From an uncultured Porphyromonadaceae bacterium (GTDB lineage Bacteria; Bacteroidota; Bacteroidia; Bacteroidales; Muribaculaceae), in contig CANPGB010000014.1 of the NCBI GenBank assembly GCA_947573485.1, positions 1 to 64,000 of the forward strand: a DNA stretch of 64,000 nucleotides, read 5' to 3'. A program made the position numbers and the translations under genes. Under the pieces are notes generated by a model. That model saw nothing but the letters and a program-made list of their open reading frames with translations, did no database searches and was not told the DNA's origin. Below are positions 1,040-33,015 of the stretch, piece by piece (within the stretch, counting starts at the first letter, position 1; each line of letters starts with the position of its first letter).

Positions 1040-1071
1040 CAAAGTTAAGGTGAATTTCTGAGACTACCAAA
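1040..1071 (-). promoter_or_regulatory. Bacteroidetes-type promoter of the leader, copy 1
   Basis: On the minus strand TTTG (1071-1068) is followed by 20 nt and TAACTTTG (1047-1040), an exact match to the -33/-7 pattern of Bacteroidetes promoters. The expected start lies at about 1033-1036, at the beginning of leader segment A. The second module copy has the same layout with TACCTTTG. Confidence 0.75.
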
Positions 1072-12441: not shown

Positions 12442-12504
12442 ACCCCAAAGTTACCCACAGGGTAACATCGGAGAAAAGACAAATAAAGCAATGCCGTGAG
12501 CATG

Positions 12505-12529
12505 AAAAAGGTTGACCTTTCGGCCAACC
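12505..12529 (-). terminator. Intrinsic terminator after the 64-aa gene
   Basis: On the minus strand GGTTGGCC (12529-12522) and GGTCAACC (12517-12510) form a perfect eight-pair stem with a GAAA tetraloop, followed by TTTTTC. It ends the monocistronic 64-residue gene. A degraded mirror of the neighbouring sequence follows the dead copy at about 13195-13225. Confidence 0.8.
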
Positions 12530-12548
12530 CTCTCTTTGAGTGGCGGAC

Positions 12549-12743
12549 TTAGCAAAACCAAGAACCTTGAACCATAGTATAGTCTGCGTTCTCAACTTCT
12601 GCTGCGGCCATTTCCTGAGCCTCTGCGGCCGAAGCTGCCGTAACGTATATAATCTCGCTTTCTCCGTCGAAGGTTATTACTTCTATCATATATTCCTTGA
12701 TTTGCGAGGTGGTGTCGTTTGTGAAGTTGCTAACGTATGTCAT
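12549..12743 (-). CDS. Small phage protein (64 aa) behind a palindromic promoter element
   Basis: A short acidic protein with a beta-beta-alpha look: EYMIEVITFDGESEIIYV, then an Ala/Glu-rich helix (SAAEAQEMAAAEVENA) and the tail MVQGSWFC. No family recognised. It is monocistronic, with the shared palindrome upstream (12797-12972) and a terminator downstream. A degraded inverted copy lies at 13018-13195. The intact gene has no good -7 box of its own. Sharing the upstream element with ardA suggests it could be another anti-defence or early-establishment protein (inference). Confidence 0.65.
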   Translation of the reverse strand: MTYVSNFTNDTTSQIKEYMIEVITFDGESEIIYVTAASAAEAQEMAAAEVENADYTMVQGSWFC

Positions 12744-12796
12744 GATTTATATGTTTAACGGGTTTTTAATTAGCGCCGTAGCGCGTTTGATTTTTA

Positions 12797-12972
12797 CACC
12801 GCCAAGTATGCACCCGGGGCAAGACGGCGCATGCCGTCGTTAGCATAGCCATGGGGCCGACGATAAAATACGCTCTTTTTAAAGCTCGACTTGAAAAAGA
12901 GGAAGATTTTATCAAGGACTTGCATGCCCTTGGCTGCGTGTGAACCGGGCGCTAACTTTGCGGAGGAAAATA
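12797..12972. promoter_or_regulatory. Imperfect palindrome P1 with promoter asymmetry
   Basis: About 170 bp, homologous to P2 at 21105-21277. Stems: GATAAAAT (12862-12869) with ATTTTATC (12906-12913); CTCTTTTT (12873-12880) with AAAAAGAG (12894-12901); AGCCATGGG (12847-12855) with CCCTTGGCT (12927-12935, one mismatch). The right arm carries CTTG, 20 nt, TAACTTTG (12953-12960), a near-consensus promoter. The mirror position in the left arm, facing the live gene, reads ATACTTGG and has lost it. A perfect small hairpin GACGGCGCATGCCGTC (12823-12838) occurs only in the left half, as in P2. Confidence 0.75.
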
Positions 12973-13017
12973 TCAATCGTGTTACGAGCGCTCCTTATCT
13001 GCCCGTATAACATAAAA

Positions 13018-13195
13018 ATGACAGACGGTGCACACACAAGCGGCACCGCCTCACGAATTAACACAATGTAGAGGTTATAATTTTCTGAGGAGAAAGCACC
13101 CCCGACTACAGCTTCGGCCGCAGAGGCTCAGGCAATGACTCCTACTCAATGGCGAAGGACTACACCGACATTCATATTTTGGTTTGCCAAGCCCC
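13018..13195 (+). pseudogene. Degraded inverted copy of the 64-aa gene
   Basis: Read on the plus strand, the sequence from ATGACAGACGG (13018) follows the 64-residue gene with many indels and substitutions. The clearest match is GCTTCGGCCGCAGAGGCTCA (about 13109-13128), then TTTGGTTTGCC and GCCACTCAGAGAGAG. The reading frame is destroyed early (TAG by about 13073). The leader before it (12973-13017) also mirrors the leader of the intact gene. It forms the right arm of an inverted duplication centred at about 12887. Confidence 0.75.
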
Positions 13196-13247
13196 GCCAC
13201 TCAGAGAGAGCCTCTGGTGAATCTGCAACCGATTTATATGCGAACAC

Positions 13248-13970
13248 CTACTTATCCGATTTTTTCCGTGCCTCAGCCTTTTTCGCGCGAGACTTAGCAA
13301 AAACCGAATTAAAATAGTTATCCATGTAGGAGACGAGCCCGTCGGGCGACGGCACTACCACATATTTAGTGTCTATTCTGCGGATTGAGTTATCTATGAG
13401 AGAGTCGAGTGGCACCAGCAGGAAGGTTTCAGGAGCAGAAGGAGTGCCACCTATACCCACAGCGAAAACCACCTTACGGCGGTTGGCGCGTTGAAACTGA
13501 CGATAGCGCTCTATCTGCCAGGCCTCGAAAGTAACGCAGTCATCTCTCCATGATGAACGGTATTTGCACTCCAGGAAATAATCGATATCCGACTTACCGA
13601 ATTTCTGTTGAACATGCAAGTCGGGATTCTTGCAAGACTCGGCAACCACACCGGCAGAAGAGACCGCATCGGTTGTGCGGTCGAGTAACTTCAGGCGCCA
13701 ATCAGCAAGAAGGTCGCAAACAAAATTCTCAAATGCATCTCCTTTTTCTTTTGGGGTCAGAGGTTTCTCCTCCTCCTGAACGGATTCAGCGCTGACAGTC
13801 GAAGGAGCAGCAGGCTCCGGATTATATACCGGTGCTGCTATTGCAGGTTTGCTATCAGGGAGTGTAAACGAATACGTCGGTTCCGATTCAGATTCAGATT
13901 CGGATTTCAAAACTAAATTTACACCGGCAATTATAGAAATAATGCCGGCTATAATGAGTGCGTAACCCAT
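13248..13970 (-). CDS. Membrane-anchored PD-(D/E)XK-type nuclease (240 aa)
   Basis: The ATG at 13970 gives an N-terminal membrane helix (GYALIIAGIISIIAGVNLVL), a Ser/Glu/Pro-rich linker (about 25-75), and a C-terminal domain (about 80-220). That domain begins EKGDAFENFVCDLL and contains the nuclease-fold signature DIDYFLECKYRSS (Asp, then ECK) and ERYRQFQRANRRKVVFAVGI. This matches the restriction-endonuclease-like (Mrr/NERD-like) fold. An anchored nuclease at the cytoplasmic face could act on incoming competitor DNA or in phage DNA handling. It lies directly after the terminase gene. Function is inferred from fold. Confidence 0.65.
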   Translation of the reverse strand: MGYALIIAGIISIIAGVNLVLKSESESESEPTYSFTLPDSKPAIAAPVYNPEPAAPSTVSAESVQEEEKPLTPKEKGDAFENFVCDLLADWRLKLLDRTTDAVSSAGVVAESCKNPDLHVQQKFGKSDIDYFLECKYRSSWRDDCVTFEAWQIERYRQFQRANRRKVVFAVGIGGTPSAPETFLLVPLDSLIDNSIRRIDTKYVVVPSPDGLVSYMDNYFNSVFAKSRAKKAEARKKSDK

Positions 13971-14097
13971 GAAAAACAATGATTGATTAAGAAGTGTGTG
14001 ACGCCAACTTAGGTGGCTGTGAGATTTACGGCTGCAAAATTAGTAATTTTTGGGGCTATGCTGCAAAAATTGCGACATAAAAAATGCAGCCGTATAC

Positions 14098-15723
14098 TCA
14101 CAGCACACCCGCCATGGAGAGAGAGAAAGAATCCCTGTAGGGAAATTTCTCACACCCGATATAGAGAGTGTCGAAGGCGTCCGTGCCGTCTGTGCGGTGT
14201 TCGAGAAGGTCTTCCTCGCTCTCGGCGAGCTTCTCACCCGACTTGTCTTTATCAAAGCCGTTGCGGCCACGTCGCACGCCTGCCGACTGGATAGCGAGAA
14301 TAAGGTCGTCATTATTCGAGCGGTTGAAGAAGGGCATAAGGCGTTGTTTACCGGCAAAGGCTTGGTTGATGAGCAGGTACTTCTCCTCTTTGCGCATGGG
14401 GTTGCCGAGGTAAACCGGCTCAACCGTCCAACCATGGCGCTCAAACTCATGCACTACCCACCAACGGAAATCCTGGTCGTTGACGGCATAGTTCGACCCC
14501 AGGGCGGTAGCATCGAAATAAAACACAACGGTTTTATTACGGTGCGCCGAGTAGTAACGGCAAAAATCGTCAATCAAGGCCGGGATTTTCCGCTCGAACT
14601 TAACATAAAACGATTTAATGACGTTGAGGCGGCGGTCGCGCGGCTGACCGGCGACAATCCAGTTAATGTTAGCGTTGTAGTCCATACCTATGCAGATAGG
14701 AGCGTCGGGGTCAACGTCGGCGTCGGCGCGTGCATCGAGCGCGTCGAAGTCATAATCATAACCGAGAGAATCGAGGTATTGATTATCGTTGGCGTCGTAC
14801 TTGTGAGCCTCACGCATTGACGAATAGAATCCGTCTTTGGCAATACCTATGCGTTGGCAAAGTATTGATGTCTGAAATGTAAGAGGCGTGAGGTCGCGCT
14901 TCATCTGCTTGATGTAGTTTTCGCCCAGGAGCTGCAAGTTCTCTATACTGCTGTACTCGCGGTAATATACAGCCACCGACCGCATCTTATTAAGGTTGCG
15001 GTCAAGACGCCGGAGATAGCTCTTCAGGTGAGCCGGAACCATTTCACCTTTGGCATTAATGGCGCGGATACGTTCCTTAGTACGCCATATCTCAAACACC
15101 GTTCCCTCGATAGTCTTTATCAGCTCGGTATCCATTTTATCCTTGTAGTAAAGGAACCACGAGCCTTTGGTTGTCTGCGGCATATCGCTCAATATCATTA
15201 TTGAGTGATTGAAGGAGTGCTTGCCGAAGTGCGACTTAATGCCGCCGTTTGCCGGGAGGGTTTCATCTTTCAGCTTCTGGTAGTCGATGAATTTAGCCTC
15301 ATCGACAAGCAGCCACGACAAAGTAAGCGAGTTGGAGCTGCCCGGGCGGTCCTGAGAGATTATAACGGCTATGCTGCCGTTATAGAACGATATAACATGC
15401 TCATACTCGAACGGCGGCGTTATAGGCTTTTTGAACGACTTGGGGGGCTTTTTGCCCACTACATAATGCACGCCCTCTATAAAGCCCCAGCGTTTCCATG
15501 CAGCGAGCAAGCCCGGGACGGTGTTTGTGAGACCGTGCTTGAACGTCGGCACCACGATGCCGCCGGTCGAGCCGGGCATGCGCTGCATATTGCGAAGCAC
15601 AAACGGGGCTGCAATAGAGTCGGTCTTACCTGTTCGGCGTCCGGCAACAATAACTGTAGTGTTCGCTCCTATAAGCTGAGTAAGGCGCTGCGGCTTGTTA
15701 AAGTATACTTTCTTCCCGCTCAT
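14098..15723 (-). CDS. Terminase large subunit
   Basis: The ATG at 15723 gives 541 residues. Walker A is AGRRTGKT (about 27-34), Walker B is LLVDEAKFI (about 150-160). The C-terminal RNase H-like nuclease starts at CIGMDYNANINWIV (Asp), with a second acidic site in VFYFDATALG. This is the ATP-driven motor and nuclease that packages phage DNA. It overlaps the preceding small-subunit candidate by 26 bases. Length is normal for the family. Confidence 0.9.
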   Translation of the reverse strand: MSGKKVYFNKPQRLTQLIGANTTVIVAGRRTGKTDSIAAPFVLRNMQRMPGSTGGIVVPTFKHGLTNTVPGLLAAWKRWGFIEGVHYVVGKKPPKSFKKPITPPFEYEHVISFYNGSIAVIISQDRPGSSNSLTLSWLLVDEAKFIDYQKLKDETLPANGGIKSHFGKHSFNHSIMILSDMPQTTKGSWFLYYKDKMDTELIKTIEGTVFEIWRTKERIRAINAKGEMVPAHLKSYLRRLDRNLNKMRSVAVYYREYSSIENLQLLGENYIKQMKRDLTPLTFQTSILCQRIGIAKDGFYSSMREAHKYDANDNQYLDSLGYDYDFDALDARADADVDPDAPICIGMDYNANINWIVAGQPRDRRLNVIKSFYVKFERKIPALIDDFCRYYSAHRNKTVVFYFDATALGSNYAVNDQDFRWWVVHEFERHGWTVEPVYLGNPMRKEEKYLLINQAFAGKQRLMPFFNRSNNDDLILAIQSAGVRRGRNGFDKDKSGEKLAESEEDLLEHRTDGTDAFDTLYIGCEKFPYRDSFSLSMAGVL

Positions 15724-16336
15724 CGTCGTGTTGTTTAGGGTCAGAGAAAAGAGTGTCGAGCTCAAGGTCGACCTCTTCGAACTCCACATCTTCAATATCG
15801 ATAGTCTCGGCCCTGTACTTCTGTATCATGGCCGAGATTTTAGCGTTGATATTCGGTATCGGCTCGATACCGAGAACACGCGGGTCATCGGTGGCGGTGA
15901 ACGGCTGCGGCACAATCATGTCGTAAGGCATAGCCTGTTCATCCTCAAGGTCTACACGATTGAGTTTGCCGTAAGCCGTAGCGGCGCGTTCCATGGTTTT
16001 GCTATCCTTGCGCTTCTCTGCCATTTTGTAAGTGGCGATGAGCATTTCATTGGTGCGCCAACGGTGAAAGTCGCGGCTGGCGCTGCCGAGCATAGGCAGC
16101 AGCGACTTTACGACTGCCAGGTCGGAGTACGCCGTTGTGCGGTGTACTCCGTGCCGTTGGCACACCTCCGAAACAAATTCTCGGTCGGTGCCGTCAGGGT
16201 TTGCTATGAACCAGTTGTACATTTCGCGCACGCGAAGTACCTTATCCACAAAAGCTTGTGGATAACGCTCGCGAAGCTCCACCTCTTTAGTGAAGAGCTC
16301 CGCGCGGCACACCTCGATTGCATTAGGGTAGCTCAT
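15698..16336 (-). CDS. Putative terminase small subunit (212 aa)
   Basis: The central part (EVCQRHGVHRTTAYSDLAVVK, in shorter form RTTAYSDLAVV) is a helix-turn-helix of the kind used by small terminase subunits. The C-terminal third is very acidic (EDVEFEEVDLELDTLF). It ends inside the start of the large-subunit gene, the normal arrangement. The 91-residue neighbour also has a helix-turn-helix, so the division of labour between the two is uncertain. Confidence 0.6.
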   Translation of the reverse strand: MSYPNAIEVCRAELFTKEVELRERYPQAFVDKVLRVREMYNWFIANPDGTDREFVSEVCQRHGVHRTTAYSDLAVVKSLLPMLGSASRDFHRWRTNEMLIATYKMAEKRKDSKTMERAATAYGKLNRVDLEDEQAMPYDMIVPQPFTATDDPRVLGIEPIPNINAKISAMIQKYRAETIDIEDVEFEEVDLELDTLFSDPKQHDDEREESIL

Positions 16337-16611
16337 TACTCATCGTCCTCCATATCGAGCAGGTTGCGGTGGGCATTTTCAATGGCCTGCGGAGAGCCAA
16401 CCTGAGCAAGCATCATCTCCTGGGAGTGAAGCTTGACCTTAGAGTTGGCCTTACCGCGACGATATGCCTTCGAGACCTCTGTAGTGCGGTCCGAAATATC
16501 GGAGCGCAACACATCGGCAGGTATGTCAAGAATAACGGCCATGTCGGAGATCTTGAGGTAAATTGAGGCAAAGCGCTCAATTTCCTCCAATTCTTTCTGC
16601 GAATAATTCAT
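16336..16611 (-). CDS. Small helix-turn-helix phage protein (91 aa)
   Basis: Helical throughout. A likely recognition unit is DMAVILDIPADVLRSDI (about 23-39), like the Phage_terminase small-subunit N-terminal type, followed by a basic helix AYRRGKANSKVKLHSQ. Its stop overlaps the start of the 212-residue gene and its start overlaps the end of the PLD-like gene. It may be the DNA-binding half of a split small terminase or a regulator. Confidence 0.55.
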   Translation of the reverse strand: MNYSQKELEEIERFASIYLKISDMAVILDIPADVLRSDISDRTTEVSKAYRRGKANSKVKLHSQEMMLAQVGSPQAIENAHRNLLDMEDDE

Positions 16612-17098
16612 GAAGCGGGACTGACTTTTTGGTGATTAACTCCTCTACCTGCTCATGGAGCCGGGCAAAAATTTCAGGGTCGGTAGAAATGAAAGCTGAC
16701 TCGTGGCGGTTGCCTCGGGTCAGGTTCTGCGATGTGATGACGGAGACCGTATGACCGGACTCCGACTTAACGAGCAGAATCTTGCTGTGGTTGTCGGCGA
16801 GATAAGTACGTTCAATTACCCGGGTAATGAACGCCCACAGCTTGAGTGTCTTGTTGGTAGCCTTGTGGTCGAGCACAAGATTGATACGCGACACTTTATT
16901 TGCTTTGCAAATGAAAAACAGACGCCGCAGAAACTCCTCGGAAATTGAGAAAGAAGTCTGCCATACCTCAGCGATGCCCACTTGTCCCAAAATCCATTCG
17001 AGGATGTCGGCAACCTGCACGGCATTTGAAAGATAAGCCTGAAAAGGAGTATCTTTCAACGGTCGGAGGATTTGGGAAATATCGGCACAGCGCTTCAT
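16577..17098 (-). CDS. Phospholipase-D-like (HKD) protein (173 aa)
   Basis: A single HKD-type motif is visible: NHSKILLV (His, Lys; about 103-110) followed by VITSQNLTRGNRHES (about 118-132), with the Asn/Ser pattern of the GSxN part. The usual Asp eight positions after the His is not evident. Single-motif PLD proteins often act as dimeric nucleases. It lies at the beginning of the terminase block in an overlapping operon. A DNA-processing role during packaging or defence is inferred. It could also be a catalytically weak relative. Confidence 0.6.
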   Translation of the reverse strand: MKRCADISQILRPLKDTPFQAYLSNAVQVADILEWILGQVGIAEVWQTSFSISEEFLRRLFFICKANKVSRINLVLDHKATNKTLKLWAFITRVIERTYLADNHSKILLVKSESGHTVSVITSQNLTRGNRHESAFISTDPEIFARLHEQVEELITKKSVPLHELFAERIGGN

Positions 17099-17661
17099 TT
17101 TTTAGCAGACTTCTTGCGGGTGGCTACTTTCTCAGCTGCGGGCACATAGCGGTCGTAAGCCTCCCAGTTGGCATGCAGCTTCTTGTCGAGCGATATAAGT
17201 TCCTTGAGGAACGGATAACGCTCGGAGTCGGGGCAGGTGGCGTTCTCGAGAGACAGTGAGCGCAATTTCATATGCAGCTCACGCATGCGCTGCAGAAGCG
17301 AGAGGTTCTCAACGTACTTTGCTTTTATATCGTCGGGGAGCGTATCATGGTCGGCTCGGCGACCTTTAGGTTCAGAGTCGGCCTTAGCAGCAAGCGGGAT
17401 ATGCTCCTCGACGATTTTCTCGACTTCGGCCTCCATTTGGGTAACTTCGGCATGAGTGAGCGCCGCAACCCTGAAATTATAATATTTCTGAAGCTGATAC
17501 TCCACGAACTGATGCTGCCGGTCAATCTGCCCTATTAAGTTCTTGTACATAATGCGGTTGCCCGACAGCTTCAGCAGGTAGAGCGCCCCGGCCTTATAGT
17601 CTCTTTCTTCGGCAGGTGTCTCGAGCCATTCTTTTATCTTTTGTGTGAAATTGTGGTCCAT
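17095..17661 (-). CDS. Helical phage protein upstream of terminase (188 aa), unknown
   Basis: Nearly all helical, with coiled-coil stretches (EAEVEKIVEEHIPLAAK and LLQRMRELHMKLRSL) and a Lys-rich tail KSAKK. It overlaps the next gene by four bases. No family recognised. Bacteroidales prophages often have a protein of this type between capsid and terminase genes; a packaging or head-assembly accessory role is a guess. Confidence 0.5.
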   Translation of the reverse strand: MDHNFTQKIKEWLETPAEERDYKAGALYLLKLSGNRIMYKNLIGQIDRQHQFVEYQLQKYYNFRVAALTHAEVTQMEAEVEKIVEEHIPLAAKADSEPKGRRADHDTLPDDIKAKYVENLSLLQRMRELHMKLRSLSLENATCPDSERYPFLKELISLDKKLHANWEAYDRYVPAAEKVATRKKSAKK

Positions 17662-17748
17662 AAGCGGTAGAAAACAAAAGGAGAGGCAGTAAATGACAGG
17701 CGGATATGCCCGGCATTGCCGCCTCTCCTGTGGTTGTGAGAGAATAGA

Positions 17749-18336
17749 TTAAGGCTCGGTTACAGAAGAGCCGGTCTTGCAGTCGATGTCGCCGTCCTCG
17801 GTCTCGAGGGTGCCGACATAGAAGGGCGCAGGCACTTCGTCGGTAGCCTCTACGTTGATTGTTGTAGAGGTAGTGCCGGTTGCACCCTGGCCGAGGTCCT
17901 GAGCAACCGTTGACTTCGTGCTCCACTTATCGTTACCGAGAACGCGGAAGTTGCCTTTCATATCCTCAACGACAAAAACATTGTCGGTGTTGTTGATATA
18001 GGCGGCTGCCGCAGTGGCATCGGAACCGACACCGGGATGAACGGCGACAAGTTTGTTGAGCTGCGTCTGGCTCGGGAGCTCGCCCTGAGCTTCCGAAGTG
18101 AGCTGCGACTTGTCGGGGAGGATGTCGATGTAGCGCCACTTGGCATCGGCGGCGAGAGTGAAGGAGCCGTCGAGAATAGCCGAGGTGGGGCGGCCGAGTT
18201 CATCGCGGGGGAGCTGCGGGAACTCCACAATCAGGCTTTTTGCAAGATAGTAGATTCGGCGCTTCACACCGGGCAGCTCGGGTGTGCCCTGGCACCACCC
18301 GAGCGACTTCTGAATCGAAGTACATTTTGTAGCCAT
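17749..18336 (-). CDS. Phage structural protein after the capsid gene (195 aa)
   Basis: Beta-rich with many Thr/Ser/Gly (for example GQGATGTTSTTINVEA) and an acidic C-terminus (LETEDGDIDC). It starts 13 bases after the capsid stop. The composition and position fit an abundant virion protein such as a head decoration or tail tube subunit. No specific family was recognised. Confidence 0.55.
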   Translation of the reverse strand: MATKCTSIQKSLGWCQGTPELPGVKRRIYYLAKSLIVEFPQLPRDELGRPTSAILDGSFTLAADAKWRYIDILPDKSQLTSEAQGELPSQTQLNKLVAVHPGVGSDATAAAAYINNTDNVFVVEDMKGNFRVLGNDKWSTKSTVAQDLGQGATGTTSTTINVEATDEVPAPFYVGTLETEDGDIDCKTGSSVTEP

Positions 18337-18348
18337 GGAGTAAAGGTA

Positions 18349-19308
18349 TTAAACGGTTATTTCGATTGTTTTGAGGCGGCGTTTGTCGATAGACTCGAAC
18401 TGGACGCCGAAGAACATCGTGGCGATGTACGAGAGGATAAAGGGAGCAAATTCCTTTATCATGACGTTCTCAACGTCGCCCATTTGGTCGTAGCCCACGA
18501 GCATGTTGCTCTTGGTTGATACGTGCATGAATTTCGACCCGGCCTTATTGTAGAGCGGGCAGAACTTGAGCTTGCCGTTGGAACCTTCAACGGCACCCTG
18601 CGCATACTGGGTGTTGTAGGGCAGCCCTCCATGAGTGAGCTGGTAGCCTTCATTGTACTTGTCGACGAAGTCCTGCGAGCAGTAGAGGTAGAGGTCCTGG
18701 CTGCGCAGGCGCGGGTCGAGAGAGTGAAGAATCTCCTTGGCGATATCCACGGCGTTAGCAGCGGTTATCTCGTCGGTGAACTTCATGTAGTTACCCTCTT
18801 CAGCGGCGATAGCACCGGCGGCAATCTCGGTTTCTGTAATGGTGTCGAAGCCGTTGAAGAGGTCGGCGGTTGTATCACCTGCCGGATTTCGCTTACCGGT
18901 CCATATTGCATCGTTAAGGTGCTCGGAGAGCGACTTTGCGATGAGAGCGAGGACGTGGCGCGCCGTTGGCGTGGTCATCTGACCGTCGCCTTTGGTTGCG
19001 CCCGTGCCGAGCAGGGTTGAGATTGCCGAGTTAGGCTCGAACTCTGCAACTACAGAGCCGAAGAAAGTCTCGAGGTCTCGTAACACGATACCGAGATTGA
19101 AGTCGGACTTTCGCTGAGGATTGTAGGGAGCGAACTGGGCATTGCCAGTGAGCTGGCCAACGCGCTCTTTGTATCGGATACCGGGGCGCCCTGTCATGAA
19201 CTTGAGCGTCTCGCCTATACCGATAATAGGCAGCATAAGGAGTTCGGAACGGTATTTTACCGCGGCCTCCTGGTACTCTTGGAGTGTGAATTGGAATTTA
19301 CCGGCCAT
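18349..19308 (-). CDS. Major capsid protein
   Basis: A 319-residue protein directly downstream of the prohead protease. It has an N-terminal helical segment (LQEYQEAAVKYRSELLMLPII), a Gly-rich loop with basic residues (GRPGIRYKERVGQL), long helices (TPTARHVLALIAKSLSEHLND), a central stretch with LDPRLRSQDLYLYCSQDFVDKY, and a beta-rich C-terminus. The arrangement fits an HK97-fold coat protein. No separate N-terminal delta domain is obvious; the scaffold is probably the protease C-terminus. Confidence 0.8.
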   Translation of the reverse strand: MAGKFQFTLQEYQEAAVKYRSELLMLPIIGIGETLKFMTGRPGIRYKERVGQLTGNAQFAPYNPQRKSDFNLGIVLRDLETFFGSVVAEFEPNSAISTLLGTGATKGDGQMTTPTARHVLALIAKSLSEHLNDAIWTGKRNPAGDTTADLFNGFDTITETEIAAGAIAAEEGNYMKFTDEITAANAVDIAKEILHSLDPRLRSQDLYLYCSQDFVDKYNEGYQLTHGGLPYNTQYAQGAVEGSNGKLKFCPLYNKAGSKFMHVSTKSNMLVGYDQMGDVENVMIKEFAPFILSYIATMFFGVQFESIDKRRLKTIEITV

Positions 19309-19329
19309 TGTAAAAATGAGAAAATGAGG

Positions 19330-20316
19330 TTATACTTCGTTGAAGAGCTGCGAGGCTGAGTTAAAGGTATTGACGAAAGCCTCTACCTCATTTTCAGGGG
19401 TAGCCTCACCGTTGCAGGATTTAGAGTCCTCGACAACCTGTTTAGAGGGCTCTGCCGGTTTTTTGGCGAGTTTGGCTTCGAGCTCGGCAATCTTAGCGTC
19501 GCGCTCTTCGATAGTTTTCTTGTTGGCGTCGACGAGGCTGTTGGCCTCTGTGAGACGCGCATTGATGGCGTTGTATTCGTCCTCGCTGTAGGTTTTTGAG
19601 GTGCTTTTTTCTTCAGACATGGTGATTGAATTGGTTTGATTCTTGAAGAGCGACGACAGAGCCGAGAGAAAGCGCCCGAAAGCGCCGTCCTTATCTCTGT
19701 CGGCAATGGGTATGTTCGGTATCGGCATGCCGGCGTTAGCCATTGCCGATGCCAGGGCGTCCGACATGCGCGGAGCCTCATCTTCGGCAAGATTGGTTAT
19801 TTCGTCGACGAAACCCCAGGCGAGCGCTTCATCAGGCGTGAGCCACCCGCCCACTTTCATGAGGTCGAGGAGTTCCTCGGGCTTACGCTTGCATCGGATA
19901 GCGTAGAGGCGGGCAACATTTTGGTCGAGCTTGTCAAGGTCGGCCTTCATCTTCTCGCAGTCGGCAATGAGGGTTGCGAACTGGTCGCTCTTAAGCGAGC
20001 CCCACTCGAAGAAAGCCATTGAGCATTTGTGCACAAGGTACATGGCTCCGGCGTCGATAGAAATGTGAGCGGCGCCGAGAGAGGCGATTGTCGCCGCCGA
20101 GGCATTGAGCCCCACGAAATGCACATTTACCTTACCATGGTTTTTGAAAGCTGCCGAAATAGAGAGGCCGGTGGCGAGCGAGCCGCCTGTCGAGTCTATG
20201 AGAACATTAACCTCCTTGCCGTCGTTCCGCGAGAGCTCGCGGTCGACCGTAGAGCGGTCGAAGTCAGAGCTCCCGACATAGCCCTTCAGCGATATGTTAT
20301 AATTGGTCTTTGCCAT
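19330..20316 (-). CDS. ClpP-like prohead protease with scaffold-like tail (328 aa)
   Basis: Residues 1-170 have the ClpP/crotonase-like S14 fold: DSTGGSLATGLSIS (about 42-55), nucleophile Ser in LNASAATIAS (about 80), His in YLVHKCSMAFFEWG (about 99-103), and GWLTPDEALAWGFVDEI near 160-175. Residues 225-328 are a charged coiled coil (NARLTEANSLVDANKKTIEE and onward) ending in a variable tail, typical of protease-scaffold fusions. It matures the prohead and precedes the major capsid gene. Confidence 0.85.
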   Translation of the reverse strand: MAKTNYNISLKGYVGSSDFDRSTVDRELSRNDGKEVNVLIDSTGGSLATGLSISAAFKNHGKVNVHFVGLNASAATIASLGAAHISIDAGAMYLVHKCSMAFFEWGSLKSDQFATLIADCEKMKADLDKLDQNVARLYAIRCKRKPEELLDLMKVGGWLTPDEALAWGFVDEITNLAEDEAPRMSDALASAMANAGMPIPNIPIADRDKDGAFGRFLSALSSLFKNQTNSITMSEEKSTSKTYSEDEYNAINARLTEANSLVDANKKTIEERDAKIAELEAKLAKKPAEPSKQVVEDSKSCNGEATPENEVEAFVNTFNSASQLFNEV

Positions 20317-20375
20317 TGTGCGGTTGAGTTTTACAATGCAAAACTACCTTTTAGTGAGGATAGGCAAAAAGACAA

Positions 20376-20408
20376 TAAAAATAAGGGCCTCCCCCTGCGG
20401 GAAAGCCC
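20376..20408 (-). terminator. Intrinsic terminator after ardA
   Basis: On the minus strand GGGCTTTCCC and GGGGAGGCCC pair (with wobble) around a GCAG loop at 20408-20385, followed by TTATTTTTATT. The degraded inverted arm has the same stem at about 21908-21937, with TTTCCCGCAGGGGGAGG conserved. This shows that the inverted duplication includes the terminator. Confidence 0.7.
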
Positions 20409-20428
20409 TCGGCACCATGGAGGCGTGC

Positions 20429-21088
20429 TCAACGGCAGAGGTTAAACACGTAGCCGTTAGAGCCCATGTAGTAGTCACACATGAATAAATCGCGGGCGAA
20501 AGCGTCGTAGTCGAAGTAGCAGGAGAGATTGCCCATTGTTTTCTCGAGGTCGTAGCATTCCTCGACTATATTGCGGGCGAAGTCGGCCTCGCTGTCCCAG
20601 CAGCCGCAGTAGGCATCCTCGAAGCCGTCGATAGTATCCTTAATTTCCAGGTAGTCGGCCACAGCCTCGGCACCGTACTTTTCACACAGTTCAGTGTATT
20701 CTTTGATGTTGCCGAAGTCCTCGCGGGTGATGAAGCCTTCATTGTAATACTCGCGGGGGAAGCCTTCGAAGTCCTGAGCCATAAGTTCAGGGGCTGTCTC
20801 ATCGGCATGCAGGGCCTCGCAGAAGTTGATGAAATCGTCGTAGTCGTCGAAGGTAGAGAGGTCTATCCAGAGGCCGCGGAGCGAGCCGTTGTTGTACTTG
20901 CCGTAGGTTCCTACATATACCGAGGGGGTTCCGTCTGCGCAGCTCTTATGCAGGGCGATTGCGGTTTCGAGCTCCGAGACTGTGAAGTCCAGCTCGTGGA
21001 GTCGCTCAGCGACTCTTGAAGTGATTGTGAGTTCTCCGAATTGCAGTTTCATAGTGGTGGTGTTTTGAAGTGTTGTCATGATGTTCAT
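20429..21088 (-). CDS. ardA: Antirestriction protein ArdA
   Basis: The 219-residue protein carries the ArdA layout: acidic throughout, WIDLSTFDDYDDFINFCEAL, a central helical part with ELCEKYGAEAVADYLEI, FEDAYCGCWDSEADFA, and the C-terminal LSCYFDYDAFARDLFMCDYY followed by GSNGYVFNL. ArdA is a DNA mimic that binds and blocks type I restriction enzymes, usually carried by conjugative elements. Start alternatives exist at codons 4 and 13. It is monocistronic between the shared palindrome (21105-21277) and a terminator. A degraded inverted copy lies on the other side of the palindrome. Confidence 0.9.
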   Translation of the reverse strand: MNIMTTLQNTTTMKLQFGELTITSRVAERLHELDFTVSELETAIALHKSCADGTPSVYVGTYGKYNNGSLRGLWIDLSTFDDYDDFINFCEALHADETAPELMAQDFEGFPREYYNEGFITREDFGNIKEYTELCEKYGAEAVADYLEIKDTIDGFEDAYCGCWDSEADFARNIVEECYDLEKTMGNLSCYFDYDAFARDLFMCDYYMGSNGYVFNLCR

Positions 21089-21104
21089 TTTTTGAAGTTT
21101 TACA

Positions 21105-21277
21105 CTGCCAAGTATGCACTTGGAGCAAGACGGCGCATGCCGTCGTTAGCAAGACAAGGGTCCGCGGCACAAATACTCTCTTTTTATAGCTCGTCTTGAA
21201 AAAGAGGAAGATTTGTGTTAGGACTTGCATGCCCTTGTCAGCGTGTGCTCCCGGTGCTAACTTTGCGGGGTAAAACT
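21105..21277. promoter_or_regulatory. Imperfect palindrome P2 upstream of ardA
   Basis: Homologous to P1 at 12797-12972. Stems: GACAAGGG (21153-21160) with CCCTTGTC (21232-21239); CACAAAT (21168-21174) with ATTTGTG (21211-21217); CTCTTTTT with AAAAAGAG around the centre. Several pairs differ from P1 by compensating changes. The right arm has CTTG (21234-21237), 20 nt, TAACTTTG (21258-21265). The left arm, facing ardA, reads ATACTTGG at the mirror position, exactly as in P1. The hairpin GACGGCGCATGCCGTC (21129-21144) lies only in the left half. Confidence 0.75.
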
Positions 21278-21280
21278 CAA

Positions 21281-21970
21281 ATGAACGTTATGACAGCACC
21301 AAAACAACACCCTATGAAAAACTCAATCGGAGAGCGAGCTTCACGTAAAGCGGCCTGCCGCCACGATTGGGCGCCACACAGTCGGCTCGAAGAAGCGGTC
21401 GCCCTTCACAAGAGCTGCTTAGACGGATTCCCCCTACATTTGGAAATGAACGGCAAGTACATAACGGCGTGCCGCCATGGATAGACCTCTCGACCTTCGG
21501 CTACTGCCTCAATCAATTACGCTGCGAGGCCCTGCATGCCGATGAGACAGCCCCTCCCCTACTCACAGCTCAGGACTTCGAGGGTATCCTCCGAGCTCTG
21601 CAACTACTAAGGCTTCATCTCCAGCGAGGACTTTGCCGACATCAATAGCGCTATGGGAAAGTACGGTGCCGAGGCTGTGGCCGCCTACATGGAAATTCAT
21701 CCAATCTAAGCCGAGGGTCACACTGCGGCTGCCGGGACAGCGAGGCCAACTTTGCCCGTAAGCGCGATGAATTTCCTACCTAAAAGCAATGGGCAATCTC
21801 TCCTGCTACTTCGGCTATGAGGCTGCCTCCTTTTACCACAGTGTGACTACTACATGAGCTTTATCGGCTTTCCTTACTTCGCTGAGCTCGCCTCCATGGC
21901 GCCGAGGGATTTCCCGCAGGGGGAGGCCCGCAACAAAAAAAGCCGCCTATCCTCACGGACCGACGGCCTG
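21281..21970 (+). pseudogene. Degraded inverted copy of ardA
   Basis: Read on the plus strand, ATGAACGTTATGACAGC (21281) mirrors the ardA start. Recognisable fragments follow in different frames: EAVALHKSCLDGFP, WIDLSTFGY, CEALHADETAP, AQDFEG, KYGAEAVAAYMEI and GNLSCYF. Stops and frameshifts break it throughout, and the copied terminator region lies at about 21908-21960. Divergence from the live gene is large, so the duplication is old or the dead arm evolves freely. It forms the right arm of an inverted duplication of about 800 bp per arm. Confidence 0.85.
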
Positions 21971-22988: not shown

Positions 22989-23137
22989 GTGATAATGCAG
23001 TTTTTCAATGCAAATATACAAAATATATTTTGCATTTGCAATGGAAATTAAAATAAAGTAAGGGTACCATTTCACAATGGCACCCAAACTCCAAAAAAAA
23101 AAATAAAAAAACTGGTGACTGTGTATGTTGGTGGCTG

Positions 23138-23383
23138 TTATTGCTGCGGAATCTCCACTATCGTATAACGGCGGTCGTCGAGGTTCTTTATATCCATTAG
23201 GGCACGGATTATAATCTCGAGGGTTTCGAGGGCGGCTTCGGCACCGACCTCTCTTATTGTATCGTAGAAGCCGCCGGGGTTGACGGCGCGGAAGTAAACC
23301 TCGGTGAGGTGGTTCTGAATCGTCTGCGGGTCCTCGGTGAAGAGCTCGATGAGGGCGTCGAGCTTGCAGTCGTTAACGGTCAT
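23138..23383 (-). CDS. Small acidic phage protein (81 aa), module copy 2
   Basis: Nearly identical to the 81-residue protein at 290-535; only three residues near the C-terminus differ, two of them conservative. Its start overlaps the stop of the 101-residue partner (ATGA). The strong conservation against a diverged leader suggests both copies are functional and constrained. The function is unknown. Confidence 0.75.
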   Translation of the reverse strand: MTVNDCKLDALIELFTEDPQTIQNHLTEVYFRAVNPGGFYDTIREVGAEAALETLEIIIRALMDIKNLDDRRYTIVEIPQQ

Positions 23384-23685
23384 GCCTCACCTCCTTTCGG
23401 GGCTTTGCTGCGGCTCAGCAGCGGGTCGACGAAGAAGATGCAGGCGGTGGCCACGGCGCTGCCCACGATAACGGCAGGCTCGCACTCGGCGAGGCTGCCA
23501 AAGAAGGCGGCGAGTGTGGCTGCAGATGCGGCGCAGAGGTTAAGGCCGGGAGCGGTGACGCGGATGCTGCGCAGGGCGCTGAGAGCGCGGCGCAGTGCGG
23601 TGGGCGACTTGGGCGCGAGGTTGAGCGCCGAGAGTATCACGACTTGGTTGCGGCGTCGTGGTGCCGTCAGGGTTAATGCGTTCAT
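23380..23685 (-). CDS. Small two-segment membrane protein (101 aa), module copy 2
   Basis: Differs from the 532-837 protein at seven positions (P7T, V30A, C36S, L43V, G51C, A54S, V65L), all compatible with the same membrane topology. The ATG at 23685 lies one base after the 19-nt leader arm, as in copy 1. An in-frame extension upstream would run through the leader and is not supported by the first copy. Confidence 0.75.
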   Translation of the reverse strand: MNALTLTAPRRRNQVVILSALNLAPKSPTALRRALSALRSIRVTAPGLNLCAASAATLAAFFGSLAECEPAVIVGSAVATACIFFVDPLLSRSKAPKGGEA

Positions 23686-23889
23686 AGCATCGTGGAGTAT
23701 AGCAAGGCAAGACAAAAAACGGCTGCCAATCCGTTGCTATACTCCACGATGCCGTCTCTTACGAGCGCAAAATGAAATCGGATAGGCAGCCGCATATATG
23801 GCTACTCCATGGGCATAAAAAAAGCCCACCGTGATGTCGGGCATTGACCGCGCCCTGGCGAGACAGACAAACTGCCGTGAAGTATAGCA
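23686..23889 (-). promoter_or_regulatory. Three-segment switch-like mRNA leader, copy 2
   Basis: Same plan as copy 1. Segment A (23889-23876) is TGCTATACTTCACG. Segment B (23752-23734) is GCATCGTGGAGTATAGCAA. Segment C (23705-23687) is the exact 19-nt complement of B and abuts the start codon. A differs from C by one base, which still allows a G-U pair with B. Relative to copy 1 all three segments have changed together, as has the inner hairpin after C (GGCA/TGCC here, GGTAG/CTACC there). A short hairpin with T7 (23842-23817) lies between A and B. Confidence 0.7.
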
Positions 23890-23892
23890 CTG

Positions 23893-23924
23893 CAAAGGTA
23901 AGGCGAAATTTTGAATCGTCCAAA
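23893..23924 (-). promoter_or_regulatory. Bacteroidetes-type promoter of the leader, copy 2
   Basis: On the minus strand TTTG (23924-23921), 20 nt, TACCTTTG (23900-23893). Spacing and position relative to segment A equal those of copy 1, so the transcript should begin at segment A in both. A T-rich terminator-like stem lies immediately upstream. Confidence 0.75.
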
Positions 23925-23935
23925 TGGATTGAAAA

Positions 23936-24302
23936 AAAATTTCGCCGGGTGAGTGGTATGTGTTTCTTGGTACACAACGGTATACACGGTACACAAGCCG
24001 CGAAAGGCGATTGTAATGCACTGAGCCTCTTATTATTATCTTTTTCTCTTAAAAAAAATAATATAATAATAGGCTCCCGGCTTGTGGCCTTTTGTGTACC
24101 AAAATTTTCGATGTGTACTAATTGTGTACCGCTTGTGTACTTTTGTGTACCACGCTATATTTTGCAATACACTATATATCAAATAGTTAACCACCGTGTA
24201 CCGTGTAACCCCGAAATGCGCCACTTTTTTGGGAGACTTTTTTTGAGTCAAAAAAAATAACCGTCATATAACATGGCGGTTATTTTGTTGTAGTAGAGTT
24301 AG
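23936..24302. other. Intergenic region with GTGTAC/GTACAC iteron cluster
   Basis: No gene. GTACAC occurs at 23970-23975 and 23989-23994 (with GTATACAC between). In the opposite orientation GTGTAC occurs at 24094, 24113, 24124, 24135, 24145 and 24196, several with TTGTGTACC context and spacings near 10-11 or 20 bases, that is, on one face of the helix. An AT-rich stretch lies at about 24030-24075. A hairpin AATAACCG/CGGTTATT (24256-24284) next to T-runs is a terminator for the gene ending at 24303. This could be a replication origin or a multi-site operator. Five GTACAC sites also lie upstream of module copy 1 (1106-1263). Confidence 0.6.
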
Positions 24303-30194: not shown

Positions 30195-30746
30195 TCACCG
30201 CCATATCACGCCGCCTTGATTGATATTCTTTTCTATATAAGCCACAACATTATTGTAATGGTGCTCGTTCCTGATAATTCTGTCCCACGACTCATGATGC
30301 CATAGCTTGCCCGTATTCCCAAGCAAGCGATTAATCTGCAGGGCGCTGAAATTCTTCCAGGACTTGCAAATTTGAGAAAGATCATGAGTCCCGGTCAATT
30401 CAACCAACACATGAACGTGATTTGGCATTATCACGTAGCTGTGAATCAAATAGCGCTCGCCATCAAAATATTCAAGTGCATTCTTCATTATCCTGCTACA
30501 ATCGGCGCTTTTCAGGCAACAGCTGCCGTAGCCTGCATCAAGATAGTTGTTGATAATCAAAGGGAACATTCTGTTAAACCGCGATTTGGTTTCTTCTGAC
30601 CAAGGCTCAGGATTCTGTTTCTTGAAATAATCTTTCATCGCTTGCAAGTCCTCCCTCACCGCTGCGGGCAATGAGTCGGCAAGATGAAAAGTGACAAACT
30701 GTATGCACCGCTCACTATGCCAATGAGGTAGATTTCTGCGCTTCAC
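30195..30746 (-). CDS. REP-associated tyrosine transposase (RAYT, Y1/HUH)
   Basis: The domain starts VKRRNLPHWHSERCIQFVTF (GTG at 30746), the typical RAYT beginning. HUH appears as MPNHVHVLVE and the catalytic Tyr is likely in YNNVVAYIEKNI. RAYTs are domesticated Y1 transposases that recognise REP hairpins. The frame stays open upstream to 30938, but that part (RKPEAYDP, CKPEACAPCG) is only translated REP sequence, so I prefer the GTG start. At least eleven REPs surround the gene. Confidence 0.8.
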   Translation of the reverse strand: MKRRNLPHWHSERCIQFVTFHLADSLPAAVREDLQAMKDYFKKQNPEPWSEETKSRFNRMFPLIINNYLDAGYGSCCLKSADCSRIMKNALEYFDGERYLIHSYVIMPNHVHVLVELTGTHDLSQICKSWKNFSALQINRLLGNTGKLWHHESWDRIIRNEHHYNNVVAYIEKNINQGGVIWR

Positions 30747-30772
30747 CGTAATACCCGGAGTGCCGCATGGAG

Positions 30773-30957
30773 CGCAAGCCTCCGGCTTGCAATTATCGCC
30801 GGTTGGATCGTAAGCCTCCGGCTTGCGATTATCGCCGGACTTACAGTTATCACTATTATCGTTGTATTTATTCATTTTATCGTTTTTGTTATTTTCGCAA
30901 GCCGGAGGCTTACGATCCAATCCAACCTTCCAATCCAATTCAAGCCGGAGGCTTGCG
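30773..30957. repeat. REP cluster 1 (four palindromes)
   Basis: REPs at 30773-30790 and 30810-30827 read GCAAGCCTCCGGCTTGC or a variant. Those at 30896-30913 and 30940-30957 read in the other orientation (GCAAGCCGGAGGCTTAC). The stretch between the inverted pair (GATTATCGC, CAGTTATCA, TTATTCATT and so on) recurs in the other clusters, giving a composite unit of about 110 bp like a bacterial interspersed mosaic element. Confidence 0.8.
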
Positions 30958-31297: not shown

Positions 31298-31391
31298 AAC
31301 TCTTTCATTTTTCTATAGTGTCAGAGATTGCAAAGATAGTGTTCTTTGACCGCTTTATCACTTTATTTGTTCAGTCATACCAATATTGGAG

Positions 31392-31531
31392 CGCAAGCCT
31401 CCGGCTTGCAATTATCGCCGCTTGGAGCGCAAGCCTCCGGCTTGCGATTATCGCAGGAGTTACTGTTATCAATATTATCGCTCTTTTTATTCATTATATC
31501 GTTTTAATATTTTCGCAAGCCGGAGGCTTAC
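31392..31531. repeat. REP cluster 2 (three palindromes)
   Basis: REPs at 31392-31409, 31428-31446 and (inverted) 31513-31531. The 31428-31535 part is nearly the same unit as in cluster 3 at 33204-33310, including GGAGTTACTGTTATCAATAT and TTCATTATATCGTTTT. It fills the gap between the DUF6150 gene and the thioredoxin-fold gene. Confidence 0.8.
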
Positions 31532-33015
31532 GATCCAATACCAATAATTTTTTCAACCCACTTTTTGTATTCCGCCACACCCGGGAATCCTGTCTGTGCC
31601 TGCACGAGTTCATGGGAGCGATTGAATATTAAATACGAAGGAAATGCTATAAGGCCATACTCTGCTCCCAGTGTTTCAGAATCCTCTTTGCATATGCGGA
31701 GATTGACGCCATCCATGTCGGCCGTGCGTCGTTCCCACTCATCGAAATCCGATGATTCGTCGCTAATATAAAGGAATACGATGTCGGACTCGGGCAGTTC
31801 TTTCCGTAGTATCTCGGTTTTGGCAATGGCGTCGAGGCAAGGACTGCACCAAGTGTTCCACAAATCCACTATTACGGGTTTCCCTTTATACATCTTATCG
31901 ATGTAACGTTTCAAATTGAAGCTGACAGCCGAAAGGTCGAGTACATTTGACTTCTTGGCGCCTGATGCCATAAGTTTAGCGTTCTTACCTATTATTATTT
32001 TGTCAAGGTCATTGCCGGAGAAACCTGTCAGAACATTCGATATCTGGGTTGCTGAAAGGGGCTGCCGATGAATGTCAATCTGCTCAACATACGACATTGC
32101 AGCAAGCAGATCAAGGAGCAACTGAGAAGGATTGGAAACAGCCGTCAACATTTTTTCCTTAGCCCGTGCCTGCCATTGAGCTACAGGTTCCTCTCCAATT
32201 TTTCCGAAACCGCCCTCAGGAAAACGAAGAAGTGCATAGATAAACGACTTCATACCGTTGTATGGCAACCGCATCAAAAGCGAGGTCGAATAATCTAAAT
32301 TGTCAAGAAATGAATACGATTCCATGGGCGGCTCCTCTACTGTTATCCCGTTCAACCGCGCTGCTATAGCAGTGTAGGGAATCGTATTACGCGCTGCATA
32401 GATAGTCTTAAGGCTGTTAACAAACCACTCCGGCGTATTGTCGGGAAGCTCTTCACCTTCGAGTGCATATTTCATCATTTCAGGGAATTGCACAGTCTTC
32501 TCGAAATCCCTCACACGTTCCCAAGAGTCGTACATTTCAGCAGGCACGACAACCGTGTTCTCCAATGATGTAAAGCGTAAGAAAATGGTATTCAGACGTC
32601 GCCAATCCTCTTTTGAAAGCGCATAAGGGTCGCTCGACCTATCTTCTGTAAAAATATAATCGTGGCCAATGGTAAACGTCAGTTCAACGGGTGTATCCTG
32701 ATAAAGGATAGCCATATAACCAAACCCCTTGGAGTCACACTCGAAGCGAATACCAACAACTTCCTGAAGTTGTTCAAGCGGTACCTCGCCTGAAAATACG
32801 TTGCCGTGTCCCTCAAGTTTGAACGTCAGATTGTCGTAAGCATCTACGAAAACAGGAGCAGTATCTACCCAGACGACAGCGTTGTCGATATTCACAGAAT
32901 CAGCATGGTTGATGATAACAGATAGTCTGGCGGTGCCTGTTTTTATATTATTCTCAATCGCAGAACAATAAAAAGAGAGCAGCCCAACGATTAAGAGGAT
33001 AGTGATTCGGCTCAT
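31528..33015 (-). CDS. Secreted TlpA/thioredoxin-fold protein (495 aa)
   Basis: The ATG at 33015 gives a signal peptide (MSRITILLIVGLLSFYCSA). A long N-terminal region of beta and helical character (about 25-350) precedes a C-terminal thioredoxin domain with KPVIVDLWNTWCSPCLDAI (CxxC near 386-389) and GAEYGLIAFPSYLIF carrying the cis-Pro. It likely acts as a periplasmic disulfide reductase of the TlpA/ResA type common in Bacteroidetes. The 3' end of the gene runs into a REP. Confidence 0.75.
   Translation of the reverse strand: MSRITILLIVGLLSFYCSAIENNIKTGTARLSVIINHADSVNIDNAVVWVDTAPVFVDAYDNLTFKLEGHGNVFSGEVPLEQLQEVVGIRFECDSKGFGYMAILYQDTPVELTFTIGHDYIFTEDRSSDPYALSKEDWRRLNTIFLRFTSLENTVVVPAEMYDSWERVRDFEKTVQFPEMMKYALEGEELPDNTPEWFVNSLKTIYAARNTIPYTAIAARLNGITVEEPPMESYSFLDNLDYSTSLLMRLPYNGMKSFIYALLRFPEGGFGKIGEEPVAQWQARAKEKMLTAVSNPSQLLLDLLAAMSYVEQIDIHRQPLSATQISNVLTGFSGNDLDKIIIGKNAKLMASGAKKSNVLDLSAVSFNLKRYIDKMYKGKPVIVDLWNTWCSPCLDAIAKTEILRKELPESDIVFLYISDESSDFDEWERRTADMDGVNLRICKEDSETLGAEYGLIAFPSYLIFNRSHELVQAQTGFPGVAEYKKWVEKIIGIGS

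What the first reader, a model, noticed from the sequence alone, without database searches (positions are those of the whole stretch)
12797..21277. Two hairpin elements with the geometry of single-stranded-DNA promoters, in front of ardA and a 64-aa gene
Seen: P1 (12797-12972) and P2 (21105-21277) are related imperfect palindromes of about 170 bp with compensating stem changes. In both, the right arm has CTTG-N20-TAACTTTG and points toward a dead gene copy, while the mirror position facing the live gene reads ATACTTGG. Thus in both loci a consensus promoter points at junk and the live gene has none in double-stranded DNA. If the plus strand folds on itself, the right arm supplies the non-template -7 box, mismatched against the left arm, and RNA would be templated leftward through the live gene. 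Known: the F plasmid Frpo/ssi elements work this way to express leading-region genes in newly entered single-stranded DNA, and ardA is a typical leading-region gene. Inferred: this phage, or the element its ardA module came from, has a single-stranded stage in which these genes are switched on first.
Basis: partly seen in the sequence, partly recalled or inferred. Interest (0 to 1): 0.9.

Follow-up and report, generated by a model that had tools for sequence, protein, structure and literature searches.

The report
Folded single-strand promoters with mirrored genes
In a group of gut-bacterial prophages, several small genes, one of them an anti-restriction gene, each sit beside a decayed mirror-image copy that holds the only good promoter, an arrangement suggesting that the gene can be switched on only when one DNA strand folds back on itself.

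Summary
P1 and P2 are centres of inverted repeats spanning a whole transcription unit (core palindrome, leader, gene, stop region). One arm carries the live gene; the other is a decayed, non-coding mirror copy. The layout recurs in related prophages for four gene types (ardA, the 64-aa gene, a ~100-aa two-gene unit, an ~80-aa gene). In 65 distinct units, a Bacteroidota -7 box (TAnnTTTG) lies in the mirror arm of 58 and the live arm of 0; allowing one mismatch to TA[AC]CTTTG, 64 versus 3. When the strand that is template for the live gene is folded, the mirror arm's -33 and -7 boxes pair with the live arm, except the A of the -7 box, unpaired in 53 of 57 units. Arm mismatches favour that strand's stability over the mRNA-like strand's (29 of 34). 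Best reading: a folded-single-strand promoter working like plasmid Frpo/ssi elements, but with Bacteroidota sigma boxes, in temperate tailed phages, extended by a gene-length mirror that may be a stand-in non-template strand. Transcription from the fold, and when the strand becomes single, are not shown.

The parts
12549..12743 (-). live 64-aa gene of unit 1; no Pfam match at E 0.05 and one weak PHROG match (phrog_20011, unknown function, E 0.041)
   Evidence: homologues in 29 of 397 family genomes
12504..12529 (-). hairpin followed by T-run on the - strand, probable terminator of unit 1 (read by eye)
   Evidence: sequence
12459..12884 (-). live arm of unit 1 inverted repeat
12797..12972 (.). 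P1, palindromic promoter core of unit 1
12802..12809 (-). broken -7 position facing the live gene (ATACTTGG)
   Evidence: TAnnTTTG absent from the live arm
12929..12932 (+). -33 CTTG in the mirror arm
12953..12960 (+). -7 box TAACTTTG in the mirror arm, pointing at the dead copy; its first T and A (12953, 12954) and its last T unpaired in the folded + strand
   Evidence: row L020
12890..13279 (+). mirror arm of unit 1: decayed inverted copy of leader, gene and downstream end
20429..21088 (-). live ardA gene of unit 2 (219 aa)
   Evidence: PF07275 E 2.8e-34; phrog_2059 anti-restriction protein
20385..20434 (-). terminator-like GC hairpin region after ardA (read by eye), mirrored at 21880-21929 (92% complementary)
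20354..21185 (-). live arm of unit 2 inverted repeat
21105..21277 (.). P2, palindromic promoter core of unit 2
21108..21115 (-). broken -7 position facing ardA (ATACTTGG)
   Evidence: TAnnTTTG absent from the live arm
21234..21237 (+). -33 CTTG in the mirror arm
21258..21265 (+). -7 box TAACTTTG in the mirror arm, pointing at the dead copy; its first T and A (21258, 21259) and its last T unpaired in the folded + strand
   Evidence: row L050
21199..21956 (+). mirror arm of unit 2: decayed inverted copy of leader, ardA and downstream end

Best explanation
Each element is the promoter end of a self-complementary transcription unit. In ordinary double-stranded DNA the only intact sigma-type promoter points at a decayed mirror copy, so the live gene has no recognisable promoter of its own there. 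When the strand that is template for the live gene (window + strand) becomes single, the unit folds: the mirror arm becomes the non-template strand carrying -33 (CTTG) and -7 (TAACTTTG), the live arm becomes the template, and the key A of the -7 box stays unpaired, which should help opening. Host RNA polymerase would then transcribe the live gene. The rest of the mirror arm, about 75-88% alike at aligned positions (with many small gaps) through the gene to just past the stop, would act as a stand-in non-template strand that helps release the mRNA. Products include an anti-restriction protein. Shown by sequence: anatomy, promoter asymmetry, unpaired A, unit-specific pairing, strand bias, extent of the mirror. 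Inferred: transcription from the fold, silence in dsDNA, the single-stranded occasion, the stand-in-strand role.
For: -7 box in 58 of 65 mirror arms, 0 of 65 live arms; 48 of the 58 have a -33-like CTTG/TTTG/TTG/CTTT 17-22 nt upstream; nonredundant (about 85% identity) 37 of 43 versus 0 of 43; with one mismatch allowed 64 versus 3 of 65. Live side was assigned from protein family, not from promoters. The live-arm segment opposite the box differs between lineages. Fold: mean pairing with the live arm 0.56-0.75 across the -33 box, 0.11 at the A of the -7 box, 0.86 at +4..+9; A unpaired in 53 of 57 and 35 of 41 nonredundant units. Own arms pair at 0.64-0.86, arms swapped across gene families (one random draw each) at 0.18-0.31. 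Arm duplex of the template strand more stable than of the mRNA-like strand in 29 of 34 units, mean 14 kcal/mol, Wilcoxon p 2e-6; excess of G.T mismatches on that strand beyond composition, 310 versus 169 +/- 19, 0 of 400 permutations. Mirror homology ends +11..+84 nt after the stop in 15 of 16 64-aa units and +37..+74 in 13 of 17 ardA units (second scoring; see evidence against). The longest frame beyond the mirror runs against the mirror promoter in 33 of 40 testable units. In 12 of 12 loci with more than one distinct unit all units are co-oriented.
Against: No transcription data. No single-stranded stage is known to me for such a temperate tailed phage; no relaxase gene was found near units and rolling-circle proteins were not searched for. 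Strand bias could partly come from mutation linked to transcription of the mirror arm. In closely related pairs live-arm changes are not followed in the mirror (1 of 56 tracked in the four closest pairs), so any selection on gene-length pairing is slow. Similarity of arms is kept partly in tracts (p < 0.05 in 7 of 10 pairs), so the gene-length mirror may be passively maintained by conversion. Many homologues lack a gene-length mirror (39 of 73 testable named ardA loci); some of them keep the palindromic promoter, but only 8 of the 39 show a -33/-7 pair pointing away. The fit of mirror end to stop codon depends on scoring: a first, gap-lenient run over-extended (Spearman 0.43, n 43), a stricter one gave 0.67, n 41. 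7 of 40 units do have a co-directional frame beyond the mirror. Co-orientation is expected in any phage operon.
Confidence: 0.6

Rival explanations
1. Cruciform promoter in double-stranded DNA. Negative supercoiling extrudes P after entry and circularisation, and RNA polymerase starts on the extruded template-strand hairpin, as phage N4 does with its virion polymerase. No single-stranded genome stage is needed.
For: N4 shows that a dsDNA phage can use supercoil-extruded template-strand hairpins (PMC4496689 passages). The cores fold strongly. Some loci have the palindromic core without a gene-length mirror.
Against: Gene-length imperfect arms should be costly to extrude and are unexplained; only the template strand is favoured in mismatch stability, whereas extrusion forms both hairpins. 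The boxes are of host-sigma type.
Confidence: 0.16
2. Relic plus antisense promoter. An old inverted duplication left a dead copy whose promoter makes a useful non-coding or antisense RNA against the phage operon; live genes are expressed by read-through from the operon.
For: The recognised phage genes around the units are on the same (-) strand as the live genes, so read-through is possible; the mirror arm has no visible coding constraint; conversion tracts keep arms alike.
Against: Does not explain why the live arm keeps pairing around but not at the A of the -7 box, why four gene types share it, the match of mirror length to the transcription unit, or the same promoter orientation in loci outside the phage.
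Confidence: 0.12
3. Fold-back inhibition of read-through mRNA. Operon transcripts contain the mirror as antisense followed by the gene, so they fold and hide the gene's start, as in IS10 (recalled).
For: The geometry would produce a long hairpin in leftward read-through RNA.
Against: Mismatches are biased to stabilise the opposite strand (29 of 34 units; permutation 0 of 400). The conserved mirror-arm promoter and the unpaired A are unexplained. Hiding a start would not need the whole gene.
Confidence: 0.06
4. Invertible promoter caught in the OFF orientation.
For: Invertible promoters between inverted repeats are common in Bacteroides (title and abstract start of PMC4747536 in the listing; otherwise recalled).
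Against: 0 of 65 units have the box facing the live gene and 0 of 34 in the partly overlapping named set. Live-arm lesions opposite the box differ by lineage.
Confidence: 0.02

Closest known systems
Frpo / ssi single-strand promoters of conjugative plasmids (F, ColIb-P9)
   Same: A strand folds to supply promoter boxes read by host RNA polymerase on the strand that is template; used for anti-restriction and other early genes (PMC11541004 and PMC7736820 passages)
   Different: Here in temperate tailed phages of Bacteroidales or in chromosomal stretches; Bacteroidota -33/-7 boxes; the unpaired A of the -7 box is near-universal; the complementarity continues through gene and stop; no relaxase nearby
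Phage N4 early hairpin promoters
   Same: Template-strand hairpin promoter in a dsDNA phage (PMC4496689 passages)
   Different: N4 uses its own virion polymerase and short sequence-specific hairpins; here host-sigma boxes and long arms
M13/G4-type complementary-strand origins (recalled)
   Same: RNA polymerase or primase acts on folded single strands
   Different: They prime replication and do not drive a gene with a mirror copy
IS10 fold-back inhibition (recalled)
   Same: Inverted copy next to a gene can sequester its RNA
   Different: Strand bias points to the other strand

Membership tests
Frpo/ssi single-strand promoters | Promoter boxes brought together by folding one strand, with the gene's template strand as the folded strand | tested here: met
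   (sequence and folding level only)
Frpo/ssi single-strand promoters | Mismatch or unpaired base in the -10/-7 box of the fold (recalled as a feature of Frpo) | tested here: met
   A of TAnnTTTG unpaired in 53 of 57 units
Frpo/ssi single-strand promoters | Lies in the leading region of a conjugative element, on the T-strand | tested here: not met
   PF03432 relaxase absent from 6 of 11 unit-bearing genomes, the window's own included, and in the other 5 not on the unit's contig or more than 700 kb away; phage genes around the window's units. Other relaxase families and T4SS genes not searched
Frpo/ssi single-strand promoters | Active on ssDNA, inactive on dsDNA | not testable with these tools
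   needs in vitro transcription
Frpo/ssi single-strand promoters | Sequence similarity to known Frpo/ssi | not tested
   reference elements not fetched
Phage N4 hairpin promoters | Phage-encoded virion RNA polymerase | not tested
   the incomplete prophage in the window was not searched for one
Invertible (phase-variable) promoters | ON orientation found among homologues | tested here: not met
   0 of 65; 0 of 34 mirrored ardA loci
IS10-type RNA fold-back inhibition | Pairing preserved on the mRNA strand | tested here: not met
   template-strand duplex more stable in 29 of 34 units
ArdA anti-restriction proteins (gene of unit 2) | ArdA domain | tested here: met
   PF07275 E 2.8e-34, bits 119.4 versus cut-off 27

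The most novel reading that the evidence does not exclude
These are hairpin operons: a new gene format in which one DNA strand carries a complete, self-templated transcription unit (promoter, template, stand-in non-template strand and terminator region), so that a dsDNA phage gene is a sensor of its own single-strandedness, for instance when host restriction and resection expose a strand, and answers by making anti-restriction proteins. The decayed mirror copy is then a functional part kept complementary rather than a pseudogene.
Probability: 0.35. Interest if true: 0.96.

Novelty: new variant of a known kind. Interest (0 to 1): 0.86.

Why it matters
If right, single-strand promoters are not confined to conjugative plasmids: temperate phages of gut Bacteroidales use them for several accessory genes, and they have gone further by making the whole gene self-complementary. 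That would offer an answer to how a messenger can be released from a single-stranded template, give a cheap genomic signature (gene plus decayed inverted copy with the promoter on the wrong side) for finding anti-defence genes of unknown function, and raise a direct question about when tailed-phage DNA becomes single-stranded in the cell. Three unknown gene families here (64-aa, ~100-aa pair, ~80-aa) become anti-defence candidates by association with ardA.

Tried and rejected
Invertible promoter: rejected, no ON orientation among 65 units. RNA fold-back: disfavoured by strand bias. Simple single old duplication: disfavoured because each mirror arm resembles its own live arm more than other mirrors (P1 mirror to own live arm 115, to L004 mirror 53.5, to L004 live arm 45), although close relatives keep orthologous mirrors. 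Conjugative leading region: frame lists of L117, L119-L122 and L126 read by eye (L118, L123-L125 and L127 were fetched but not read) and a relaxase search in 11 genomes gave no sign of it. Rfam: only 6S and SRP RNAs in the window, nothing at the units. The 64-aa protein: predicted strand-strand-helix-strand (mean pLDDT 79.6), no PDB match with E <= 0.001. Plasmid collection: 4935 records with an ArdA match, 6 at 60-80% identity, the rest lower; phage collection: 63 records, all below 60%; neither was examined for mirrors. No DNA match to unit 2 in the phage collection; exact core pattern in viral contigs 0 hits. Order-wide search with the 64-aa profile: 4 of 393 genomes, two of them G000 and G003; my narrow script found no matching frame in the two loci from other families. 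Mirror extent: first scoring over-extended, replaced by a stricter one. Literature: searches, 81 of the held PMC library listed no description of gene-length mirror units that I could recognise from titles and abstract starts; only passages of PMC11541004, PMC7736820, PMC4496689 and PMC7366714 were read, the rest as listings.

Rows dropped before counts: one search left out L001-L010 (short or duplicate loci) and L116 (masked N runs); of its 120 units, 4 were unassigned and the rest reduced to 65 by exact identity of the live gene. Some of the 65 are weak (score 55-65). Searches used 57 of 65 (8 without a matching box near the core); one search used 41 of 43 nonredundant units; one search used 34 nonredundant units with score 120 or more; one search used 41 units with full flanks; 18 of 30 64-aa loci had a mirror, 2 lacked upstream DNA, 10 distant homologues had none; 19 of 30 ardA loci had one, 8 did not, 3 were not testable; of 80 loci 73 were testable (6 too short, 1 no frame), a few with a wrongly chosen frame; a mirror was called at 15 above the best of 10 shuffles, 4 of the 34 (L156, L172, L199, L200) are weak, and the set overlaps the earlier one.
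Full report
What is in the sequence. P1 and P2 are as described: related palindromes (83% identical) that fold better than any of 200 shuffles, each with CTTG-N20-TAACTTTG in the right arm and ATACTTGG at the mirror position facing the live gene. But each is only the centre of a longer inverted repeat. On the left is the live gene on the - strand (64-aa gene 12549-12743; ardA 20429-21088); on the right an inverted, frameshifted copy of the same leader, gene and downstream end. In unit 2 the copy differs from ardA about equally at the three codon positions (36 of 194, 36 of 200, 31 of 196) and carries many small deletions, so it has no visible coding function.

How general it is. The 64-aa protein has homologues in 29 of 397 genomes of the family and ArdA in 71 of 397. 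Of 30 loci taken for each, 18 and 19 have an inverted copy of the gene upstream; the others are distant homologues, loci without enough DNA, or unclear. A sliding scan of 20 stretches found mirrors almost only at such units (one other hit in the window, the repeats near 31 kb) and revealed two further gene types with the same layout, a ~100-aa gene followed by a 66-aa gene, and an ~80-aa gene. In named genomes 34 of 73 testable ardA loci have a mirror (4 of them weak), including Duncaniella muris DSM 103720, Leyella stercorea DSM 18206, Prevotellamassilia timonensis and a Paludibacteraceae MAG.

The asymmetry. I assigned the live side by protein family only, then read outward from the palindrome centre. 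TAnnTTTG, the Bacteroidota -7 box (PMC7366714 passage), is in the mirror arm of 58 of 65 distinct units and in the live arm of none; 48 of the 58 have a -33-like motif 17-22 nt upstream. Six of the seven exceptions carry TAACTTCG or TACCTTCG; with one mismatch to TA[AC]CTTTG allowed the count is 64 versus 3 of 65. Nonredundant at about 85% identity it is 37 versus 0 of 43. By chance about 3 of 65 arms would carry such a box (my arithmetic), so the live arms are simply without one while their mirror partners keep it. Of 17 homologues re-read individually, chosen for lacking a gene-length mirror (one, aL073, has one), 15 have a TAnnTTTG pointing away from the gene and none toward it, aL075 outside any palindrome. 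Against this, in the named set only 8 of 39 loci without a mirror show a -33/-7 pair pointing away, and 0 of 39 toward, so the more distant ArdA genes mostly have neither. The longest frame beyond the mirror runs against the mirror promoter in 33 of 40 testable units.

The fold. With DNA energy parameters, the strand that is template for the live gene folds so that the -33 box pairs (0.56-0.75), most of the -7 box and the leader pair (0.6-0.97 from +3 onward), and the A of TA does not (0.11); it is unpaired in 53 of 57 units, 35 of 41 in the nonredundant set. That A is the base flipped out by sigma during opening (recalled). Arms of the same unit pair at 0.64-0.86; swapped between gene families 0.18-0.31. 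Paired positions downstream use all four Watson-Crick types across units (partners there are chosen by the folding itself).

Which strand. Mismatches between arms are not neutral as to strand. The template-strand duplex is more stable than the mRNA-like duplex in 29 of 34 nonredundant units (mean 14 kcal/mol, Wilcoxon p 2e-6), and G.T mismatches on the template strand exceed a within-unit permutation (310 versus 169 +/- 19, 0 of 400). An earlier count on 23 units gave 438 versus 313, with 16 of 22 decided units in that direction. This argues against RNA fold-back and for single-strand DNA folding, with the caveat that transcription of the mirror arm could skew mutation.

Extent and upkeep. The mirror stops just past the gene: +11 to +84 nt after the stop in 15 of 16 64-aa units, +37 to +74 in 13 of 17 ardA units, +10 and +49 in 2 ~80-aa units, and -202 to +118 from the end of the second gene in 6 two-gene units (Spearman 0.67, n 41). 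A more gap-lenient first run over-extended into flanking DNA (Spearman 0.43, n 43). Each mirror is most like its own live arm, yet in the four closest pairs only 1 of 56 live-arm changes is matched, and matched sites cluster in tracts (p < 0.05 in 7 of 10 pairs). So complementarity is restored episodically, probably by conversion between arms, which itself implies that the arms meet.

The host element. Recognised genes around the units are those of a temperate tailed phage: terminase (phrog_2), portal (phrog_11226, weak), Clp-type protease, DnaG-type primase, HTH repressor; a relative (G190) is a compact stretch of about 42 kb between a frame that I read by eye as a tyrosine integrase and a repressor-like frame. 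A relaxase (PF03432) is absent from 6 of 11 unit-bearing genomes, the window's own included, and in the other 5 is not on the unit's contig or, in G173, lies about 757 kb away. In 12 of 12 loci with several distinct units they point the same way.

Interpretation. The pieces fit a promoter that exists only when one strand folds, as in Frpo/ssi. The gene-length mirror is the new part: an RNA made on a bare single strand should tend to stay hybridised, and a partner strand along the whole unit would displace it. This last step is inference. When the strand becomes single (entry, resection after restriction, replication) is unknown. A cruciform reading, as in phage N4, remains possible and needs no single-stranded stage, but does not explain the long arms or the one-strand bias.

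What is known. The searches listed under Tried and rejected showed no earlier description of such units in the held library; subscription papers are mostly missing there.

Noticed in passing
window 203-1147 and 23053-24013: Direct repeat of about 950 bp, 89% identical, one copy at the contig start and one in the early part of the prophage.
   Followed up: no
window 30762-30940, 31387-31544, 33156-33336: Three direct copies of a ~160-180 bp palindrome with CAAGCCGGAGGCTTGCG motifs next to a Y1 (IS200-like) transposase gene at 30195-30938; resembles a REP/RAYT arrangement (recalled).
   Followed up: partly
window 60381-60570 and 47767-47873 (- strand): 6S RNA (RF01693) and small SRP RNA (RF04183), so the right part of the window is host chromosome.
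   Followed up: no
L011 10899-11468; L017 4812-5350; L089 10977-11544: Two-gene mirror unit (~100-aa MAKK protein plus 66-aa protein) next to the 64-aa unit in relatives; neither protein tested has a Pfam or PHROG match.
   Followed up: yes
L102 13853, L107 4262, L110 12996, L094 17528, L017 709: Fourth mirror-unit gene type, ~80 aa (MILPDK...), no family match for the one tested.
   Followed up: partly
core of P elements: Apical hairpin keeps AAATCT(T/C)C...AGTATTT-like flanks with a one-base bulge in many units while stem and loop vary (read by eye); could be a protein-binding feature.
   Followed up: partly
L067 and L069: 94% identical mirror arms but only 78% identical live ardA arms, suggesting allele replacement of the live gene alone.
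   Followed up: no
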